Shown here piece after piece: positions 3,547 to 35,143 of a DNA stretch of 35,143 nt. Made by a program: the position numbers and the translations under genes. The notes under the pieces were generated by a model. It saw nothing but the letters and a program-made list of their open reading frames with translations. It was not told where the DNA came from and did not search any database. The stretch is from Bacillota bacterium (lineage in GTDB: Bacteria > Bacillota > Bacilli > Alicyclobacillales > Alicyclobacillaceae): contig DAHWFY010000009.1 in NCBI GenBank assembly GCA_027336365.1, forward strand, positions 1 through 35,143, in the 5' to 3' direction. Positions within the stretch are counted from its first letter, which is position 1. Every line of letters starts with the position of its first letter.

Positions 3547-3774
3547 AAATGTGCGTATCCCGGAAAAAGTTAGGTCAGACCCAAACAGCGCGAGGAGGCA
3601 AACCTAAAATGCGCACCGGGTCTGGCTTCACCCGTGGGGAGCAGTTAGACTGGTGTGGGGAGCGTTTAGACCAGTGGGAGTCCTGTGCTGTACGTTTTCG
3701 GTACATGAAGGAACATTTTGCGCGACGACGAAGCACTGCGCCGGGAAGCTCTGACCTCTTTCCGGGCAACCTCT
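3547..3774 (+). repeat. Repeat family R, copy A
   Basis: Copy A (228 bp) fills nearly all the space between the converging genes at 2373 and 3773. Its ends are inverted repeats: TCCCGGAAA..GGTCAGA on the left, read back as TCTGACC..TTTCCGGG on the right. Inside are the family signatures CCTAAAATGCGCAC, GTACGTTTTCGGTAC and GGAACATTTTGCGCGACGA. A local duplication (two copies of a GTGGGGAGC..TTAGAC unit at about 3636-3677) is absent from copy C. Its right end overlaps the stop codon of the kinase at 3773. It has no convincing coding content. Confidence 0.8.
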
Positions 3775-4867: not shown

Positions 4868-5473
4868 CCCAATCCCCCCCGTAAGCGCGCGTAACTACTA
4901 TGATTGTGTCGTTGATTGTACTCCACAAAGAACCAGGTTCCCGATTTACGGTATGACGTTAGACGACTAGCGTGGATCACAGGCGGACACATCTACCTCT
5001 CTCTACATCATTTTACAGTCCACATTTGAATAACACCACTCTGACGTCGAACCTGCAAGAAGAATATGGGGCATACTCATATCAGTGTTGGCAACCTTTC
5101 TGCGGCTTTCTCTATCGTGGCGTCCGATATGGTGGCGTTTGACGTGGAATTCCAACTAAGAATCAGAACAACTTTTTATCTGTAATCTGCCGTAATCTGC
5201 AGAAAACTCTTGAATAGTTCGACGTTCTCCGTCGGATCCCTGCCAAAATTGACGACATTTCGGGATACATACATGTCTTGACATTCACGGTGTGCAAAGA
5301 AAGAAGTCATTGAAGGATGGCAAATGCCGCAGAGAACTGTTTTCATCGCAGATTCCGTTGCAGTCATAGAACCCATTTCCGTCACACACAACACCCGCAG
5401 GAACAGAATATCTCCGAAATGGGGTCAACCTTTGTCTCGTTTGAATAGGCCCCCAAATTCCTCCCAAGTCCAT
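4868..5473. other. Non-coding stretch upstream of E5 and the riboswitch
   Basis: About 600 bp with no convincing gene. A 56-codon minus-strand frame (5176-5346) could encode a small Cys-rich peptide (CGIC near the start, HREC later), but it has no clear ribosome site or recognisable family. The motif GTAATCTGC occurs twice within 20 bp near 5182-5201. No terminator or strong promoter was recognised. Confidence 0.4.
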
Positions 5474-5536
5474 CCAGCAAATACTACTACTTGGATTTAC
5501 ATTCCTTGCCGGTGCCGCTATCAGCGACATAAGGAT
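5474..5536 (+). repeat. Dispersed 63-bp repeat E, copy E5 (diverged)
   Basis: It runs from CCAGCAAA through TTGGATTTAC, GGTGCCGCTATCAGCG and AAGGAT. It has the layout of the other E copies but more mismatches: the second hairpin is imperfect and the flanks (GTCCAT left, CTATT right) are no longer equal. It is probably an old insertion, about 90 bp upstream of the c-di-AMP riboswitch. Confidence 0.7.
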
Positions 5537-5621
5537 CTATTGGTAATATTTTTGCATGGTCAAGCCAGGATAGCCATGCTAAGCTGAGGCAGAATTGTCC
5601 CTGCTTCCAGTGGGACACATC

Positions 5622-5772
5622 AAGCCGAATCACCAGCCGACATTCGGCGGTGTACGGGGGATTTCGGTCCAATGTTGGCATTGGACTTGGGGTGAATCGG
5701 GACCCGGAAACGCAGTCCCGTAGGCCGCACTCGTCGGCCGAACCCGACAACTAACCCCGAAGGCGACACGAG
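5622..5772 (+). promoter_or_regulatory. c-di-AMP riboswitch (ydaO/yuaA type)
   Basis: The aptamer landmarks occur in order: AGCCGAATC (about 5623), GGTGTACGGGGGA (about 5649), TTGGGGTGAATCGG (about 5687), CCGGAAAC, and near the 3' side CGAACCCGACAACTAACCCCG followed by GAAGGCGACACG. This combination is typical of ydaO-class c-di-AMP riboswitches, which in Bacillota turn off cell-wall hydrolase and ion-transport genes when c-di-AMP is high. The aptamer ends about 15 nt before the ATG of the LysM/SleB gene. The ribosome site GAGGGG (5770-5775) abuts its closing stem, leaving no room for a terminator. Control is therefore probably at translation initiation (inference). Confidence 0.92.
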
Positions 5773-5786
5773 GGGATGAAAACTCC

Positions 5787-6872
5787 ATGTTCAATCGTCA
5801 GTCAATCTCGCCTCATGCGAACCAGGCCGAGGGAAATTCGACTCATTTTCACTTGGCGAAACCAGCGACCCGCCGCCTATTGGCTGCCACGATGGGTGCA
5901 ACACTCAGTGGCATACTGAGCACCACGCCAGCGTTTGCTGTAACCCAATCTACTCTCAGTACCCCATCATCCGCCGGCAACCAAACGGTCACCGTACAGG
6001 CAGGACAGAGCCTATGGTCCATCGCGCGCATTCATGGGATTCCATTGACAGACCTTGAGGCCGCAAATCCAGGGGTGCAACCTCTGAACCTGCAAATCGG
6101 TTCTATTTTACGACTCCCTTTGGGTTTATACCGAGTCCAATCGGGAGATACTTTTTGGAACATCGCGCAACGATTGCATGTGCCCGAAAATGCATTGATG
6201 ACTGCAAACCCCGGTATCCCGGCCGGTGACCTACAAGTGGGGCAAGTCCTTAACCTGCCTGCCGGACTGAGTCTGGGATTGGCGGAACAGACCTCAGCCA
6301 GCACATCGGTTGCACGACAGCGTCCATTCCCACAAAGAACTACCCCATCCATGGCAATCAGTGGGACAAGTCAGACCGCCCATTCCACTCAGACCACAAC
6401 GGCAAACTCGGGCGCATCATCCACATCGGCAGCCGTCCAACAGACTGTTTCGGCCTCTGCCAACGTTAGTAATATCACTCCGTCCCCCAATGGCACTCAA
6501 ATCCAGCAGAACCTGTACTGGTTGGCCAAGATTATTCACGCCGAGGCGGACGGAGAGCCAATGAACGCCCAGATTTCCGTGGGTGACGTGGTCTGGCACA
6601 GGGTGCTTTCGCCCGACTACCCAAACACCGTCGAGGGGGTTGTATTTCAAATCAGCAACGGTCACTACCAGTTCAGCAGTGTCACGCAGGGATTTTTCCA
6701 GTCGTCTCCCGGTGCGGACAACTTGGCCGCCGCGAGGGCTGTGCTGCAGCAACACGAGGACTTAGTGCCCGGCGCCTATGTATTTTACAACCCTGCCCAA
6801 ACTCCGTCTGGTAGTTGGGTGTGGAGCCAACCTACCATCGCTCACATCGGGGCATTTGTGTTCGCGCATTGA
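5787..6872 (+). CDS. Secreted LysM-SleB/CwlJ-type cell-wall hydrolase
   Basis: A 361-residue exported protein. The first 51 residues form a long signal peptide with likely cleavage after PAFA. Two LysM peptidoglycan-binding domains follow (about 67-111 and 114-158; QAGQSLWSIARIHG and QSGDTFWNIAQRLH). A Ser/Thr-rich linker spans about 165-235. The C-terminal Hydrolase_2 domain (about 242-361) has the likely catalytic Glu in IIHAEADGEP, plus VVWHRVLSPDYPNTVEGVV and HYQFSSV. SleB/CwlJ enzymes cleave cortex or wall peptidoglycan; the LysM pair anchors it to the wall. GAGGGG lies 11 bp before ATG 5787. The preceding riboswitch links its expression to c-di-AMP, a common pairing for such enzymes. 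A role in growth, lysis or germination cannot be told from sequence. Confidence 0.92.
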   Translation: MFNRQSISPHANQAEGNSTHFHLAKPATRRLLAATMGATLSGILSTTPAFAVTQSTLSTPSSAGNQTVTVQAGQSLWSIARIHGIPLTDLEAANPGVQPLNLQIGSILRLPLGLYRVQSGDTFWNIAQRLHVPENALMTANPGIPAGDLQVGQVLNLPAGLSLGLAEQTSASTSVARQRPFPQRTTPSMAISGTSQTAHSTQTTTANSGASSTSAAVQQTVSASANVSNITPSPNGTQIQQNLYWLAKIIHAEADGEPMNAQISVGDVVWHRVLSPDYPNTVEGVVFQISNGHYQFSSVTQGFFQSSPGADNLAAARAVLQQHEDLVPGAYVFYNPAQTPSGSWVWSQPTIAHIGAFVFAH

Positions 6873-7040: not shown

Positions 7041-7227
7041 ATCCCCATATTTCGAGCAGAAATGGAGCAATAGGGTACAAAATGAGACCGTCGATTCACG
7101 AGGTTTCGTAAGACTTGAACAAGATATAGAGAGTTTTATCTGCATGTCATACACTGATGGTGGCCGCAAGTCGTTCACCATCACATCGAATTCCCTGTGA
7201 TTCTCTTGCAGATTGAATCGGCGGTCT

Positions 7228-7369
7228 CAAATAAGGGTCCATAAGTCGCTAATAGCCCCTTTCAAGCCACGGATCGCCTAAACAAGCGTCCGCCAAGCTC
7301 TTATTCCGGCAAATTTCGCACAAACACGGGGGAAAAAGGTGCAATAGGCGACTTTCGACCTCTTATTTG
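7228..7369. repeat. 142-bp element with imperfect inverted ends
   Basis: The left arm at 7228-7255 (CAAATAAG, then AAGTCGC) is mirrored by the right arm at 7343-7369 (GCGACTT, then CTTATTTG). Eight outer bases and an inner heptamer match exactly at equal spacing. No coding frame is convincing. It could be a MITE-like remnant or a long hairpin. The rest of the 6919-7623 gap shows nothing else except the 12-bp repeats listed separately. Confidence 0.5.
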
Positions 7370-7508
7370 CGTTTCATTTCCCGTTATTGGATGATTTAAC
7401 GACTGGGGAACCCTTAATTCCAGAACCGTAATCATCTACCCTCCCCTTCCGTCAAAGATGGTCGCCCAACTAAAGGTGGCCTCTTCAGTCCGTCAAATAG
7501 GGTGCCCC

Positions 7509-7986: not shown

Positions 7987-8188
7987 AGTGCGTGTCTGGA
8001 AAAGTAGTTAGGTCCGATTCAAGCCATGTGAGGAAACCAGCCTAAAATACGCATAGGACCTGCTCCCCAGTGGGAAGCGTTTAGACTGCGAGAGCCCCGT
8101 GCCGTACGTTTTCGGTACGTGAAAGAGCATTTTGGGCGATGACGTGGCAATACGTTGGGAAGTTCTGACCCTTTCCCTGCACGCACTA
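7987..8188 (+). repeat. Repeat family R, copy B (diverged)
   Basis: Ends AGTGCGTG (left) and CACGCACT (right) are inverted. Internal landmarks match the family: CCTAAAATACGCA, CCCCAGTGG, GAGCATTTTGGGCGATGA and GTACGTTTTCGGTACGTGA. It lies just upstream of the DUF4870 gene, in the opposite direction. Confidence 0.75.
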
Positions 8189-12284: not shown

Positions 12285-12291
12285 CGAATAG

Positions 12292-12354
12292 ACCCTCATG
12301 CCGCTGTTAGCGGAATCAACCAGGGGTGCAAATCCACATCATTGTATTTGCTGG
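12292..12354 (-). repeat. Dispersed 63-bp repeat E, copy E4, in the cpaB leader
   Basis: Read on the plus strand it begins ACCCTCATGCCGCTGTTAGCGG and ends ATTTGCTGG, the reverse of the other copies. The GTAAAT/ATTTAC stem of the other copies is here GCAAAT/ATTTGC, a paired change that keeps the helix. Flanks are AATAG (left) and GATAA (right). It separates the flp terminator from the ribosome site of cpaB and would be part of any read-through transcript. Confidence 0.85.
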
Positions 12355-12382
12355 GATAAATCAAATTCTGGGAGGGAGTGTC

Positions 12383-21926: not shown

Positions 21927-22068
21927 GGTCTCCGCCCTTTCCCTCCTGCCTCCTTACGGAGTTGTGCAGGTCTGTATGGCCTTTCCACCTATTCTTTCCC
22001 TCTGAGTTTAATCCTGCATCCTTTGCGGCGCAAACTCCAGCCAAGCCCTCCATCTAACGAACAAGCGA

Positions 22069-22184
22069 CCTTGGTCTTCATGCAGGACTCCATCCAACCT
22101 TGGTCTTCATGCAGGACTCCATCCAACCTTGGTCTTCATGCAGGACTCCATCCAGCCTTGGTCTTCATGCAGGACTCCATCCAA
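22069..22184. repeat. 29-bp tandem repeat, four units, overlapping the rbsK 3' end
   Basis: Four head-to-tail 29-bp units start at 22069, 22098, 22127 and 22156; each contains TTGGTCTTCATGCAGGACTC. Units differ by at most one base. A decayed partial unit lies just before the first. The stop codon of rbsK falls inside the last unit. There are no spacers, so it is not a CRISPR array. Nothing else was seen between 21927 and 22068. Confidence 0.95.
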
Positions 22185-23100
22185 CCTCGCCATCCAATAG
22201 CTGCTCTGTTTCTTGTCGGCTAGGAATGGCTTCCTGGGCTCCCTGACGAGTCACCGCCAACGCTGCGGCGGCCACGGCAAAGCGCAGGGCATCTTTGCGG
22301 CCTTCCATTCGTGCCACGGCAAACGCCCCCACAAACGTGTCTCCCGCCCCTGTGGTGTCTACCACAGGCACTGTGAATGCAGGTACAACTTCCATATTGC
22401 CGAACACGTCTGCATAAGCCACTCCTCCTGCGCCCAGGGTCACCACCACAATGGCTGGTCCCTTTCGGCACAGTTCCTTTGCGGCAACTTGGCCGCTGTC
22501 CCCATCGCTTACGGAATGGCCGACAAAGTGAGCGGCCTCCGTTTGGTTGACCACAAGAATATCTGTCAGCCCTAACATTCCCTCATCCACGCCCTCCAAG
22601 GGTGACGGGTTCCAGAGAACCCACACTCCGTTTTGTTGGGCGAGTTCCATGGCCCGCAAGGTAACCTCGCGTGGGATTTCGTTTTGCAGCACAATGGCAT
22701 CACATTGGACGAACACTGAGGCCATGGCCTCAATATGCGCTCTCGTCACTCCGGCGTTTGCCCCCGGCACCACCACAATGGTATTCTCCCCCGCCTCGTC
22801 CACCGTCACCACAGCCATTCCAGTGGTCTCATTGAGGGTAACCACCCCCTGTGTGTCGACTCCATTTACCTTCAACATTTCTAATAATTGGTTTCCCCAG
22901 AGGTCTGCCCCCACGGCACCCACCAATAAGGTCTGTCCCTCCTGACTGGCGCGGGCTGCGGCCACCGCTTGATTTGCCCCCTTGCCACCGGGGGCGTAAC
23001 GAGTTGTCGAAGCACGAACCGTTTGTCCGGGCAAAGGATGCTGTTGCACCCGGTTGATTAAATCCATATTCACACTACCCACGACACAAATATTTGGCAA
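22165..23100 (-). CDS. rbsK: Ribokinase-like PfkB-family sugar kinase
   Basis: A 311-residue kinase that phosphorylates ribose (or a related sugar) on the 5-OH. Motifs: VVGSVNMDLINRV at the N-terminus, the first PfkB signature region GGKGANQAVAAARA, the second signature VVDTTGAGDTFVGAFAVA with the catalytic Asp, and IVVTLGAGGVAY. TTG 23100 is chosen because GGAGAG lies 6 bp upstream; an earlier in-frame start at 23160 would overlap the oxidoreductase gene. The gene follows that oxidoreductase by 25 bp. No ribose transporter is nearby. The last six codons lie in the 29-bp repeat, so the native end may have been replaced. Confidence 0.92.
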   Translation of the reverse strand: MPNICVVGSVNMDLINRVQQHPLPGQTVRASTTRYAPGGKGANQAVAAARASQEGQTLLVGAVGADLWGNQLLEMLKVNGVDTQGVVTLNETTGMAVVTVDEAGENTIVVVPGANAGVTRAHIEAMASVFVQCDAIVLQNEIPREVTLRAMELAQQNGVWVLWNPSPLEGVDEGMLGLTDILVVNQTEAAHFVGHSVSDGDSGQVAAKELCRKGPAIVVVTLGAGGVAYADVFGNMEVVPAFTVPVVDTTGAGDTFVGAFAVARMEGRKDALRFAVAAAALAVTRQGAQEAIPSRQETEQLLDGEVGWSPA

Positions 23101-23125
23101 GTTGTTCTCTCCTAACAGACAGTGA

Positions 23126-24055
23126 TTACTTGACCGCCAAGACAATTTTACCTCTTGCATGTCCGGACTCGCTCAGTGCGTGAGCCTCCTGCACACTGGA
23201 CAAAGGGAAAACCCTTCCCACCACGGGTCGCAGTTTTCCTTGTTCAATCCATTTCCCTAACCGGATCAATTTTTTACCGTCAGGTTGCAAGAAAAAGTAC
23301 GAGATTTCCACTGGATGTTCTTCGATAAGTTCTGCAGAAGGAGGTTGCACAATGGAAACCAAGCGCCCGCCCGGTTTCAAGACGCGAAAACTATTTTCCT
23401 GCACAGATCCTCCTAACAAATCAAATACCAGGTCCAGGTCCCGTATCCTCAGGGCAAAGTTCTCCGTCTGGTAGTCAATGACCTCATCCGCTCCCAAGTC
23501 TTTCACAAAATTTACATTCCCTGCGCTGGTGGTTGTAACCACCCATGCTCCCAAGTTCTTGGCCAATTGGATGGCGTGCACTCCCACCCCACCAGCACCG
23601 GCGTGAATAAGTACTCGTTGACCTGACCGCAATTTGCCGTGCTCTACCAGACCTTCCCACGCGGTCAAGGCCGCCAGCGGAACAGAAGCCGCCTCCACAA
23701 AGGTAATGTTTCCCGGTTTGGGAGCCACCAAACTTTCATCCACAACCACATACTCCGCATAAGCCCCATTTCGCTCCGTGGCCGGGCGAGTAAAAACGGG
23801 ATCGCCAGGATGAAACTGGGTCACCTGACGGCCCACTTCTTTCACCACCCCGGCGGCATCCCAGCCTAAAATCAGGGGTAACGGATAGTCAATCCGGTGC
23901 CGCAGCCGACCTTCGCGAATTTTCCAGTCCACCGGATTCACCCCGGCGGCATGAACCTCAATCAACACGTCCAGAGGCCCCACGACTGGAACCGGCACCT
24001 CCGCCAACTTCAACTGTTCTCGACTTCCATAGTGATTAATAATGATGGCTCGCAA
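23126..24055 (-). CDS. NAD(P)H:quinone oxidoreductase (zinc-free MDR family)
   Basis: A 309-residue quinone oxidoreductase-like enzyme. The GroES-like N-terminal part has HAAGVNPVDWKIREG and LGWDAAGVVKEVG; the Rossmann part has VLIHAGAGGVGVHAIQLAK (about residues 145-163). Zinc-binding Cys residues of classic alcohol dehydrogenases are absent. The C-terminal LSSVQEAHALSESGHARGKIVLAV is typical of the family. It likely reduces quinones or enones with NADPH. It starts at ATG 24055 after a purine-rich GAAGGAAGGGT site. Confidence 0.9.
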   Translation of the reverse strand: MRAIIINHYGSREQLKLAEVPVPVVGPLDVLIEVHAAGVNPVDWKIREGRLRHRIDYPLPLILGWDAAGVVKEVGRQVTQFHPGDPVFTRPATERNGAYAEYVVVDESLVAPKPGNITFVEAASVPLAALTAWEGLVEHGKLRSGQRVLIHAGAGGVGVHAIQLAKNLGAWVVTTTSAGNVNFVKDLGADEVIDYQTENFALRIRDLDLVFDLLGGSVQENSFRVLKPGGRLVSIVQPPSAELIEEHPVEISYFFLQPDGKKLIRLGKWIEQGKLRPVVGRVFPLSSVQEAHALSESGHARGKIVLAVK

Positions 24056-24207: not shown

Positions 24208-24213
24208 CCTATC

Positions 24214-24276
24214 CCAGTAAATTCAGGTACGTGGATTTACCTTCCCTGCTGGTGCCGCTAACAGCGGCATGAGGGT
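24214..24276 (+). repeat. Dispersed 63-bp repeat E, copy E1
   Basis: It runs from CCAGTAAATT to GAGGGT. Hairpin one uses CCAG/CTGG and GTAAAT/ATTTAC; hairpin two is TGCCGCTAACAGCGGCA. The direct repeat CTATC(C) flanks both sides (24209-24213 and 24277-24281), as expected for a target duplication. It sits at the truncated end of the IS607 tnpB fragment. Confidence 0.9.
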
Positions 24277-24633
24277 CTATCCGCATAAAATGTGATGGGC
24301 TCGTTGGGTTGGCCTAGTTGTGACAGACGTTTCTTGCGGTCGGTAGCTTCCCACAATTTGCGCAGACTGTTCCGCGATTTTACTTTTCCAACGGTGAACT
24401 GCTTTCTTCGCGTCCAGCACGGCTAAATGCCCGACGAAGAATTCCATGTAAAATGCAATCGTTTGGTTGTATAGTTCTTGTGTCGCCAAGATAGCCTGCC
24501 GTTTGGCGGCATGAACTTCTTTATGAATGCCGATCTTCACCGTTTTCACCAGTATGGCCACCCGTTTCGCCTCCCTCCATGTCATCCATGAGCTTTTTTG
24601 CTTTCTGGCGAAACTCTTATGATCGTTTCCCAT
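24277..24633 (-). pseudogene. Truncated IS607-family tnpB (N-terminal part only)
   Basis: About 118 codons remain of a gene that is normally near 400. The N-terminus overlaps the end of tnpA as usual in IS607 elements, and the segment AKRVAILVKTVKIGIHKEV with ELYNQTIAFYMEFF is the TnpB wedge-domain opening. No RuvC motifs or zinc finger remain. The frame ends at the TAG formed by the CTATC flank of repeat E1, so this remnant cannot encode a nuclease. Confidence 0.75.
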
Positions 24634-25159
24634 ACAAACAAGCTGAAAACACAGTCACAATCGTTAATAAGTCTTGTACCAATTCTTCCTGTGAGGCTTT
24701 GGGCTCTGTTTTATGGGTCACTTCCACCGTCACACCGTGACTACTTAAATGTCGTTCGAGATATCGATAGCCGAACCGTGCCAAGCGGTCAGGGAATTCA
24801 ATCAGTACCCGTTGAATCTCATGATGTTCAGCCATTTGCAGCAGTTGATGAAGTTGCTTCCGGTTCTCGTTGATACCAGAAGCCTGTTCCTGAAAGACAC
24901 GGGTTACCTCATAGCCATGATCTTGTGCATATTGCTTCAAACGTTGCACTTGCCGTTCTAAGTTGCTATCTGCTTTTTGCTTTGCTGACGACACTCTGGC
25001 ATAAATCGCGACTTGTTCCTGCGTGCGCACTCCCATAATCCGATTCACTTCACGAACACTGTACAAGCGCCGATCCGTCGGTGAACGTGTTTCTTGGATT
25101 TTCCCTTCTTTCTGCCACCTGCGAATGGTTTGGGGTGTGACACCGAGTCGTTTAGCCAC
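24617..25159 (-). CDS. tnpA: IS607-family serine recombinase TnpA
   Basis: A 180-residue protein. The N-terminal MerR-like helix-turn-helix is RLGVTPQTIRRWQKEGKI; the serine recombinase domain starts IYARVSSAKQK (catalytic Ser near residue 57) and continues with LERQVQRLKQYA, FQEQASGINENRK and LIEFPDRLARFG. The end DLLTIVTVFSACLYGKR is the family C-terminus. The sequence upstream of GTG 25159 still reads R-NIGKVAKRLGV in frame with a stop before it, so the original ATG may have mutated to AGA, leaving a start five codons later. The element's tnpB is truncated, so mobility is doubtful, though TnpA itself may work. Confidence 0.85.
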   Translation of the reverse strand: MAKRLGVTPQTIRRWQKEGKIQETRSPTDRRLYSVREVNRIMGVRTQEQVAIYARVSSAKQKADSNLERQVQRLKQYAQDHGYEVTRVFQEQASGINENRKQLHQLLQMAEHHEIQRVLIEFPDRLARFGYRYLERHLSSHGVTVEVTHKTEPKASQEELVQDLLTIVTVFSACLYGKRS

Positions 25160-25541: not shown

Positions 25542-25768
25542 AACGATCAATTCCTTTCAGTACAAAATTCACCACTACGTTCCTTTCAAATTGTGACTCC
25601 AACAAACCAATCTCAGCTAGAATTCATATGAAATAAGTGTAAGTTTCATGGACTCCATGCCAAATCCAAAATCCAGAATGGGGTATGTATTTGCAACTAG
25701 ATGACTGTATGACATAATGCAGGTAAAATGAGTGCCTATGAATGACTTTTCATACTGAAATACCTTAT

Positions 25769-25966
25769 AGAGCGTGTCCGGAAAGGGGTCCGGTCAGACC
25801 CAAGCAGTGCGAGGAGGCCAGCCCAAAATGCGCACTGGGTCTGCTCCCCAGTGGAGAGCGTTTAGACCGGCGTAACGTTCCGTACGTTTTCGGACCGTGA
25901 AGGAGCATTTTGGGCGACGATGCGGCAATGCGCCGAGGAGTTCTGTCCCCTTTTCGGACAACCTCT
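25769..25966 (+). repeat. Repeat family R, copy C (best conserved)
   Basis: 198 bp with inverted ends TGTCCGGAAAGGGG (left) and CCCCTTTTCGGACA (right). An inner pair, CCCAAAATGC and GCATTTTGGGC, makes a nested inverted structure. Other landmarks are GGTCAGACCCAAGCAGTGCG and GGCAATGCGCCGAGGAG. No transposase is encoded. Confidence 0.85.
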
Positions 25967-26147
25967 TACAGAGGAGCAGATCCTGTATGGATTTAGTCCT
26001 TTGGATGGATCAATAAGGAGGCTGATTGGCTCACAGCAGCAGCGGATGAGAGCAAGATGTACTAAGCGCTACGACATCCTCGGGTGCTTTCGTCTGCAGG
26101 TTGACCCTTGCAAAAAGGGGATTCGTGTTTTGAGGGGACATTAGTGA
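25967..26147. other. Leader upstream of the cellulose-synthase-like gene
   Basis: 181 bp between repeat R-C and the synthase start. A frame that begins inside the repeat runs through it and stops 3 bp before the next ATG, but its start in repeat DNA and lack of a ribosome site make it doubtful. I could not match this leader to a c-di-GMP riboswitch. GAGGGG sits 10 bp before ATG 26148. Confidence 0.4.
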
Positions 26148-28315: not shown

Positions 28316-29488
28316 ATGAAAACATCCAAAGCGTATCGATTTCGCTTCTACCCGACAGCAGAACAAGCGCAATTGCTCTCCCAAACCTTCGGGTGTGTTC
28401 GCTATGTCTACAATTGGGCACTGAAGGCGAAAACGGATGCCTACTACAACGAGGGTAAACGCATCTATTACAAGGACATGTCCGCCCAACTGACGGTATT
28501 GAAGCAACAACCGGAAACGGTCTGGCTCAACGAAGTGTCTAGTGTGGCTTTGCAACAAGAATTGCGACATTTAGACCGAGCCTTCATCAACTTTTTTGCA
28601 GGGCGTGCTCGATATCCGCAATTCCACAAAAAGCATGGAAAATAGTCAGCTACCTTTGCATCTTCGGCGTTCAAGTGGGAGGGTCAACATATCACACTGG
28701 CGAAAACGAAAGAACCGCTCAATATTCGCTGGTCGAGAAAACTAAACGGGATTCCCACTTCACTGACGATTACCAAAGATACTGCGGGACGCTACTTTGT
28801 TTCGCTCACCATAGAAGAAGACATCACGCCATTGCCTGAGATCAATCAGCAAGTTGGCGTTGACTTAGGACTTCTGGATGTTGTCATTCTCTCCACTGGG
28901 GAGAAGGTGGGAAATCCACGATTCTTCCGCAAGGATGAGAAACGACTTGCCAAGGCTCAAAAACGTCTGTCTAAAAAACAAAAAGGCTCCAAGAACCGCG
29001 ACAAGGCAAGAGTGAAAGTCGCGAGGATTCACGCCAAGATTGCAGACCGCCGTCAAGACTTCTTGCACAAGCTCACTACCAGACTGATTCGCGAGAACCA
29101 AGTCATCAGTTTGGAGAGTTTGCAGGTCAAGAACATGATTCAAAATCATCCCCTGGCCAAGTCCATTGCCGATGTGGGCTGGGGGGAACTTGTCAGGCAA
29201 CTCGAATACAAAGCAACGTGGTACGGGAGAACGGTGGTCAAGATCGACAAGTTCTACCCCTCCAGTAAGCGTTGCTACGATTGTGGTCACATCATGCCAA
29301 AGATGTCACTTCACATTCGCAAGTGGACGTGTCCTGAATGTGGAGAAACGCATGACCGTGACATCAATGCCGCACAGAACATCTTAGCCGCTGGATTAGC
29401 GGTGTTAGCCTGTGGAGAGGCCGTAAGACCAGGGCGCAAGCCATCCTCGCGTCACGGCAAGCTTCAACGAAGCAGGAAAGCCAACTAG
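28316..29488 (+). pseudogene. tnpB: tnpB with one in-frame TAG (codon 110)
   Basis: A 391-codon TnpB frame, intact except for TAG at 28643-28645, where the surrounding HGK-?-SATFASSAFKW suggests a lost Gln (CAG to TAG). Everything past it is well kept: RuvC Asp in GVDLGL (about residue 183), Glu in ISLESL (about 267), zinc-finger Cys pairs CYDCG and CPECG (320, 323, 339, 342) and the last RuvC Asp in DRDINAAQN (about 349). TnpB is an omega-RNA-guided nuclease that helps retain the element. Possible outcomes are inactivation, amber read-through, or restart at TTG 28832 to give a RuvC-containing fragment. It looks like a recent loss. Confidence 0.88.
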
Positions 29489-32691: not shown

Positions 32692-32767
32692 AACCACTCC
32701 CACAATGCCATACCAAAACGGTTTGAGCCAGCGAGTGCTGCCTGAAACAACCTTGATTGAACCTTTA

Positions 32768-32991
32768 AGAGGTTGTCCAGAAAGGGGTCAGATCACCCTG
32801 GCGCATTGCTGCGTCGTCGCCCAAAATGCTCCCTCGCATACCAGAAACATACGCTTGGTGCACATTTAGGGCTGGTCTCCTCGTACTTCTTGGGTCTGAC
32901 CTAACCAGTAAATACAATCCCGTGGATTTACATTCCCTGCTGGTGCCGCTCTCAGCGGCATGAAGGTCTAACCCCTTTCCGGACACACACT
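32768..32991 (-). repeat. Repeat family R, copy D, carrying E3
   Basis: The right-hand family end reads in reverse first (GGTTGTCCAGAAAGGGGTCAG at 32771-32791), followed by CGCCCAAAATGCTCCCTCG. The left end, with TTTCCGGACACACAC, lies at 32977-32990. Between CTGACCTAA and CCCCTTTCC, where copies A and C are continuous, sits the 63-bp repeat E3. Confidence 0.85.
32905..32967 (+). repeat. Dispersed 63-bp repeat E, copy E3, nested in R-D
   Basis: It runs from CCAGTAAATA to GAAGGT, with hairpin TGCCGCTCTCAGCGGCA. CTAA(CC) occurs on both sides (32901-32904 and 32968-32971). Other R copies have that sequence once, so E3 inserted and duplicated it. Confidence 0.92.
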
Positions 32992-33019
32992 TTCAGCACA
33001 GCCAGAGACTTGTGGCGAA

Positions 33020-34845: not shown

Positions 34846-34862
34846 GACTGATACCCCCTATC

Positions 34863-34926
34863 CCAGTAAATACAGTTGCGTGGATTTACCTTCCCTTGCT
34901 GGTGCCGCTAACAGCGGCATGGCGGT
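34863..34926 (+). repeat. Dispersed repeat E, copy E2
   Basis: 64 bp, from CCAGTAAATA to GGCGGT, with perfect hairpin TGCCGCTAACAGCGGCA. CTATC flanks both sides (34858-34862 and 34927-34931). It lies 17 bp upstream of the GNAT start, in its leader. Confidence 0.92.
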
Positions 34927-35066
34927 CTATCCTCAAGTTAAATCGAGGGCTGGTTCCCCCTCGACTCAACCTGCACTCAACTCAGCATATGCAACCCCAT
35001 GGGCGATGGCGCATGTTGGGAAGTGAGTGGACAGGCAACCTCCAGCCTGAGTGGACACGCACTTTA

Positions 35067-35143
35067 AGAGGGTGTCCGGAAAGGGGTCAGAACTCCCCAG
35101 CGCATTGCTGCGTCATCGCCCAAAATGCTCTCTCACGGGCCAA
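35067..35143 (-). repeat. Repeat family R, copy G (cut by window edge)
   Basis: It begins AGAGGGTGTCCGGAAAGGGG and continues to CGCATTGCTGCGTCATCGCC and AAAATGCTCTCTCACGGG, matching the right half of family R in reverse. Just before it, 35053-35063 (GGACACGCACT) matches a left R end, so a second broken copy may adjoin. The 34932-35052 gap shows nothing else. Confidence 0.75.

What the first reader, a model, noticed from the sequence alone, without database searches (positions are those of the whole stretch)
32768..32991. Repeat E inserted inside repeat R gives a direct before/after view of insertion
In R copies A and C the sequence corresponding to CTGACCTAAC..CTTTCC is continuous (with small differences). 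In copy D it is split by the 63-bp E3, with CTAA(CC) present on both sides. This fixes the E ends to within two bases and shows R is older than this E insertion.
Basis: seen in the sequence. Interest (0 to 1): 0.55.

Follow-up and report, generated by a model that had tools for sequence, protein, structure and literature searches.

The report
Tiny IS110-derived hopper inside another repeat
A 67-letter mobile repeat sits inside an older mobile repeat; its two ends match those of IS110 jumping elements, which choose insertion sites with an RNA guide, so it looks like a natural miniature passenger of that machinery with hundreds of copies in one bacterial genome.

Summary
In detail: repeat copy D (32769-32989) is split by E3, 63 bp between two CTAA words (67 bp added). 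E is a large family: 234 pattern matches (0 in the reversed control), 65 model matches in 427,543 sampled bases. R is a separate inverted-repeat element with 6-bp target duplications; 9 of 33 full-length R copies held for this genome carry E, always at one site, and 0 of 9 held for a sister species. An AU test rejects one clade for the nine (p 0.002). A covariance model of E, built without prior idea, hit left ends of IS110-family elements in related genomes; E's other end matches their right end. Those IS110 elements carry a bridge-RNA-like segment whose guide letters track their insertion sites (9 guides, 0 of 20,000 permutations as high). Best reading: E is a miniature, non-autonomous IS110 derivative moved in trans by an IS110 recombinase and bridge RNA. 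No partner was found in the held genome (83% complete); a decayed bridge-RNA relic lies in the sister species, and its guide fits E's targets best of ten. D itself is not a before/after site: its orthologue lacks R too. Movement is inferred, not observed.

The parts
32763..32768 (.). left target duplication of R copy D (CTTTAA)
   Evidence: 41 R copies average 5.12 of 6 flank matches, shuffles average 3.48, maximum 3.98 in 2000
32769..32901 (+). R copy D, part left of E (inverted-repeat element, start GAGGTTGTCC)
32901..32904 (+). CTAA at the left junction (core CT/CTA)
32905..32971 (+). E3, 67-bp mini-element (63 bp plus its right CTAA); its minus strand reads like an IS110 left end followed by the right end
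32908..32931 (+). hairpin 1 of E3, GTAAAT/ATTTAC; corresponds to IS110 subterminal GAAAAT (left end) and ATTTTC (right end)
32944..32960 (+). hairpin 2 of E3, TGCCGCT/AGCGGCA; matches the IS110 left-end hairpin
32968..32971 (+). CTAA at the right junction
32972..32989 (+). R copy D, part right of E (CCCCTTTCCGGACACACA)
32990..32995 (.). right target duplication of R copy D (CTTTCA)
5468..5541 (+). E copy (diverged)
12287..12360 (-). E copy
24209..24281 (+). E copy beside an IS607-type remnant
34858..34931 (+). E copy; the G001 orthologue lacks it and reads CCCCCTATC at the left junction
3553..3774 (-). R copy without E; site reads CTGACCTAAC
8001..8188 (-). R copy without E; site reads CGGACCTAAC
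25764..25971 (-). R copy without E; site reads CTGACCGGACCCC
35062..35141 (+). R copy, cut by the window end

Best explanation
E3 is one of several hundred copies of a 67-bp non-autonomous element that is, by its ends, an internally deleted IS110-family insertion sequence: about 46-50 bp of the left end, with its hairpin, joined to about 16-20 bp of the right end. It codes for neither the recombinase nor the bridge RNA. It is inferred to move in trans: an IS110 recombinase loaded with a bridge RNA recognises the circular junction ...GGATAG/ACC... as donor and a short target such as G(G/A)ATAG (CTAT(C/T)C on the strand of E), exchanges at the shared core, and leaves core letters on both sides without a longer target duplication. 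The R element can offer such a target (GGGGTTAG on the minus strand, CTAACCCC on the plus strand), so E entered R at the same site more than once; some R+E composites may then have been copied as a unit. Shown by sequence: the family, both end matches, no duplication beyond the core, repeated use of one site, guide/target agreement in the related IS110 elements. Inferred: the trans partner, the circular form and the movement.
For:: the E model R1, built before any link was suspected, hit IS110 left ends in G047 (24 matches) and G045 (4); the adjacent ORF is an IS110 transposase (PF01548 E 5e-39, PF02371 E 9.5e-26). E against the G047 IS110 ends, left end median 35 of 45 identical (D: 36), median score 21 against a maximum of 9 in 3000 window controls; right end 89 of 125 copies with 11 or 12 of 14 allowing one gap, against 2 of 3000 controls (D: 11); both ends of the IS110 read from 12 insertions; the letters after the left and right CTA of 46 single copies are uncorrelated (26 matches, 24.9 expected), so no ordinary target duplication; the copy at 34858 has an empty orthologue in G001 with CTATC present; one R site used repeatedly; one-clade AU p 0.0022; nearest relatives of D's E lie outside R; nine distinct guide segments in IS110 left ends match their own insertion sites at 3.35 of 5 letters, 1.59 by permutation, 0 of 20,000 as high; decayed bridge-RNA relic in G001 with guide TGGAA before TAG, 12th of 1024 five-letter words and best of ten guides for 53 E targets; hairpins kept by compensatory changes across genera (11 cells with both sides changed, shuffles 3.8, 0 of 500 as many). 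Passages read: a mini-IS with 29-bp left and 16-bp right ends moves with recombinase and RNA supplied in trans (PMC11187229); a 22-bp donor works with bridge RNA in trans (PMC11208160).
Against: No autonomous partner with E-like ends was found in the held genome: five IS110-domain matches without E-like ends, no match to the related transposase at 1e-20, no bridge-RNA match. The genome is 83% complete in 366 contigs, and multicopy elements often fail to assemble. Pre-insertion R with CTAW at the site is rare here (0 of 24 full-length empty copies). E targets are only weakly conserved outside the core, and the relic guide fit is modest. Within the family alone the hairpins show no covariation.
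Confidence: 0.82

Rival explanations
1. E is an IS200/IS605-type or REP-type mini-element, moved as single strand by a Y1 transposase that recognises the hairpins and a tetranucleotide next to them.
For: Two hairpins, no target duplication, constant CTAW at the left and CTA at the right, tandem arrays of period 67-68; three Y1 matches exist in the genome.
Against: The Y1 loci read have other ends (L098 is itself interrupted by E). The E model found IS110 ends and not Y1 elements; both E ends match IS110.
Confidence: 0.05
2. E entered R once and all R+E copies are descendants spread by R's own transposition.
For: Same site in all copies; part of the copies share a derived CTGACTTAT junction; R-located E copies are nearest to one another more often than by chance (6.0 of 14, permutation mean 1.4, 12 of 2000 as high).
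Against: One clade rejected, p-AU 0.0022, though in a poorly resolved tree; the E of D and the E of L022 (the L002 R copy) have non-R E copies as nearest relatives.
Confidence: 0.15
3. E is a conserved functional DNA or RNA element of the host (terminator, regulatory hairpin, protein-binding site) and not a mobile element.
For: Conserved hairpins.
Against: E interrupts other mobile DNA (R, a tnpB in L098), is missing at an orthologous site, forms tandem arrays, and differs in number between two species of a genus (84 scored, a ceiling of the search, against 12).
Confidence: 0.04

Closest known systems
IS110-family insertion sequences with bridge RNA / seekRNA (IS621, ISEc21; PMC11208160, PMC11187229, passages read)
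   Same: Both termini, a left-end hairpin, a short shared core without longer target duplication, site-specific insertion; the related elements here carry guide letters that match their targets.
   Different: E is 67 bp, has no recombinase gene and no room for a bridge RNA; its targets are short and loosely conserved; copy number is in the hundreds.
Laboratory mini-IS of ISEc21 with LE 29 bp and RE 16 bp moved in trans (PMC11187229, passages read)
   Same: Two short ends suffice when recombinase and RNA come in trans.
   Different: E is natural and widespread in its genome, and carries no cargo; its mobilisation was not tested.
Bacterial MITEs (review PMC10969869, passages read)
   Same: Short, non-coding, many copies, presumed to depend on a transposase in trans.
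   Different: E has no terminal inverted repeats and no ordinary target duplication; IS110 has 0 occurrences in that review's held text.
QMITE2/IS1111 in Coxiella burnetii (PMC5896051, passages read)
   Same: An IS110-superfamily insertion nested with a small repeat.
   Different: There the small repeat is the target of IS1111; here the small repeat is the inserted IS110 derivative and a different repeat, R, is the target.

Membership tests
miniature IS110-family element (E) | left terminus matches an IS110 left end | tested here: met
   median 35 of 45 identical, controls far lower
miniature IS110-family element (E) | right terminus matches the same element's right end | tested here: met
   89 of 125 copies with 11 or more of 14 (one gap allowed), controls 2 of 3000
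miniature IS110-family element (E) | no target duplication beyond the core | tested here: met
   26 of 46 against 24.9 expected; one orthologous empty site
miniature IS110-family element (E) | constant target motif | tested here: met
   CTA followed by T, C/T, C enriched in 52 single copies; same site in R. Weak outside these letters
miniature IS110-family element (E) | autonomous partner with the same ends in the same genome | tested here: inconclusive
   none found, but the genome is 83% complete in 366 contigs; filed as IS110-derived by its ends, living partner unknown
miniature IS110-family element (E) | movement by an IS110 recombinase and bridge RNA in trans | not testable with these tools
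   needs an assay
IS110 family (related elements in G047, G045, G003) | DEDD plus transposase_20 domains | tested here: met
   for the L156 protein; others by homology
IS110 family (related elements) | left-end RNA segment whose target guide matches the insertion site | tested here: met
   nine distinct guides; the fold has weak covariation
IS110 family (related elements) | donor guide that matches the element's own end | tested here: inconclusive
   a GCAGGATAGA word lies downstream in several left ends, seen by eye, no control run
IS200/IS605 or REP | Y1 element with the same ends | tested here: not met
MITE with inverted repeats (R) | terminal inverted repeats and target duplication | tested here: met
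   5.12 of 6 against 3.48
MITE with inverted repeats (R) | autonomous partner | tested here: inconclusive
   no long element with these ends and equal flanks, in the held loci only

The most novel reading that the evidence does not exclude
E is a natural bridge-RNA-dependent mini-transposon: a pair of IS110 ends too short to encode its own guide, spread to several hundred copies by guides made elsewhere. Its insertion sites, including repeated hits of one site in R, are a natural record of what a bridge RNA accepts as target (for example G or A at the second position before the core, as expected if a guide G tolerates wobble).
Probability: 0.65. Interest if true: 0.72.

Novelty: new variant of a known kind. 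Interest (0 to 1): 0.6.

Why it matters
IS110 elements are the source of programmable bridge-RNA recombinases. A natural 67-bp substrate family in hundreds of copies would show that short ends alone can be mobilised in trans in nature, and would give a large natural data set of donor ends and accepted targets. The related full-length elements here also give nine guide/target pairs. In five full-text searches of an open-licence library I saw no title or abstract start that describes an IS110-derived miniature element; most listed papers were not read (for example PMC11578231, which holds both IS110 and non-autonomous), and subscription papers and preprints were not covered.

Tried and rejected
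IS200/IS605 (Y1) origin: favoured at first because of hairpins and CTAW; dropped after the Y1 loci showed other ends and the E model hit IS110. Target duplication of CTAW: rejected by the lack of left/right correlation. Covariation inside the family: none, so the hairpin support comes from other genera. An autonomous IS110 in this genome: not found, 131 of 135 E-type left ends in the held loci had an E-type right end close by, and I saw no transposase-bearing element in the four exceptions. D orthologues with R but without E: none seen; G001 lacks both. An early count of E in G001 (0 in 260,968 bases) does not mean absence: one search lists 12 matches in that genome. Genome and virus collections: E pattern 1 contig in genome contigs (Alicyclobacillaceae bacterium I2511), 0 in viral contigs. 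The scan found no relative. In one search the script labelled 11 R copies as carrying E; two (L218, L018) have E next to R and were recounted as empty. In one search an ungapped comparison in a wrong register gave low identities; one search replaced it. In one search, L160, L161, L162 and L163 come from genomes whose handles I did not trace, and L163 fits poorly (2 of 5) but was kept.

Full report
What is there. R copy D spans 32769-32989 and is split after GGGTCTGACCTAA by 63 bp followed by a second CTAA. R is a ~150-bp element with inverted ends GAGGTTGTCCGGAAAGGGG / CCCCTTTCCGGACACGCA and 6-bp target duplications (41 copies, 5.12 of 6 matching, shuffles 3.48); D has CTTTAA/CTTTCA. R occurs in 9 of 41 genomes searched.

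E is its own family. The right half of E matches 234 places of the 3.14-Mb genome with up to 3 mismatches, 119 and 115 per strand, 0 for the reversed control. A profile of E finds 65 matches (56 full length) in 427,543 bases of sampled stretches plus window, which would be about 480 per genome if the sample is fair; the contigs were picked partly because they hold E or R. E stands alone, in R, and in tandem with period 67-68 sharing one CTAW (of 125 copies 36 tandem-associated, 21 in or at R ends, 68 elsewhere).

E in R. Of 33 full-length R copies held for this genome 9 carry E, all at the same place; of 9 for G001 none does. Trees of R reject one clade of the nine (p-AU 0.0022, tree otherwise poorly resolved). 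Fourteen E copies have R on both sides; their nearest E is also in R more often than by chance (6.0 against 1.4), but the E of D and that of L022 have nearest relatives outside R. I read this as several insertions at one preferred site, with some copying of the composite. A result against a simple picture: none of the 24 empty full-length R copies here has the CTAW word at the site; it is present in two diverged window copies and in L066 of G003.

Ends and target. Among 46 single copies outside R with a readable left core (of 61), the letter after the left CTA and after the right CTA agree 26 times, 24.9 expected: no duplicated target. The logo of 52 copies (of 68) gives (C/T)CTA on the left and CTA-T-(C/T)-C on the right, fading after three letters. 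The copy at 34858 has an orthologous empty site in G001 that already reads CCCCCTATC. D's orthologue in G001 lacks R and E.

The link to IS110. A covariance model of E (R1) searched in 59 genomes of the order matched 14. In G047 and G045 the matches are the left ends of ~1.57-kb elements with an IS110 transposase. Read on the minus strand, E is TAGACC..CATGCCGCT-AGCGGCACCAGCAG..., as in the IS110 left end TAGACTCCCATGCCGCCGGGGCGGCACCAGCAG..., and ends TATTTACTGGATAG or ..CTGGGATAG, as the IS110 right end TATTTTCAGGATAG. Measured on 125 E copies: left end median 35 of 45 identical, right end 11 or 12 of 14 (one gap allowed) in 89 copies, with 3000 random window positions far lower. In g20 genomes (G030, G033, G034) E-like elements keep both hairpins through compensatory changes (99.4% of cells paired, 11 cells with both sides changed, 0 of 500 shuffles as many); I chose six g20 and seven g1 rows for that count.

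Bridge RNA. The left ends of the related IS110 elements contain a conserved segment whose letters just before TAGAC (or TAAGAC, TAAAC) vary between lineages together with the letters before the element itself: CTGAT, CTCAA, CCGAA, ACGAT, AGAGT, TGAAA, GTGCA, CTGTG, ACTTC. Mean agreement 3.35 of 5, permuted 1.59, 0 of 20,000 permutations as high; one of the nine, that of L163, fits poorly (24 insertions in all). The motif was noticed by eye on part of these elements before the test, so the test is not blind. The consensus fold has a stem-flanked internal loop there, with little covariation. This is what bridge RNA or seekRNA predicts (PMC11208160, PMC11187229, passages).

Partner. The held genome has five IS110-domain matches, none with E-like ends, no match to the G047-type transposase and no bridge-RNA match. 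The sister genome G001 has one decayed left end with a bridge-RNA match (E 4.5e-9) and no transposase ORF next to it. Its guide, TGGAA before TAG, ranks 12 of 1024 words and first of ten guides against 53 E targets of the window's genome. G001 appears to be Alicyclobacillaceae bacterium I2511: its E copy in L166 has the same letters as L146 from that record (comparison by eye). So the window's organism is very likely in that family.

Mechanism. Shown: an inserted, repeated, IS110-ended mini-element. Inferred: circle formation, recombinase and bridge RNA in trans, exchange at the core. Support from print: in ISEc21 a mini-IS with 29-bp left and 16-bp right ends moves when recombinase and RNA are supplied; in IS621 a 22-bp donor recombines with bridge RNA in trans.

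Novelty. Miniature elements are known and IS110 elements are known; I saw no title or abstract start of an IS110-derived miniature family, and the 2024 prokaryote MITE review has no mention of IS110 in its held text. I read passages of five papers only (PMC11208160, PMC11187229, PMC5896051, PMC3718332, PMC10969869); other papers were seen as listings.

Noticed in passing
window 7199-7431: A ~233-bp repeat with about 40 listed matches in the sister genome G001; not studied.
   Followed up: no
window 5613-5779: c-di-AMP riboswitch (RF00379, 64.6 bits) upstream of a LysM/hydrolase-like ORF at 5787 (the ORF label is recalled from its sequence, not searched).
   Followed up: no
window 22068-22183: 29-bp tandem repeat, about four near-identical units, at the end of the ORF at 22165-23160.
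   Followed up: no
window 24277-25159: IS607-type recombinase and truncated TnpB remnant (labels recalled, not searched) with an E copy abutting the truncated end.
   Followed up: partly
window 28316-29488: TnpB-like gene broken into two ORFs (label recalled).
   Followed up: no
L116 17086-17124: A perfect 39-bp palindrome made of two E/IS110-type left ends head to head, flanked by TTGA/TCAA.
   Followed up: no
L171 1704-1962; L190, L206: Some G047 IS110 copies have their terminal ~128-131 bp of the right end duplicated.
   Followed up: no
L098 1150-2010: A Y1/TnpB element whose tnpB is cut by two tandem E copies.
   Followed up: partly
L096 minus strand near 1623: A second, E-like sequence with a CTAAAC end resembling the G018 IS110 left end.
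   Followed up: no
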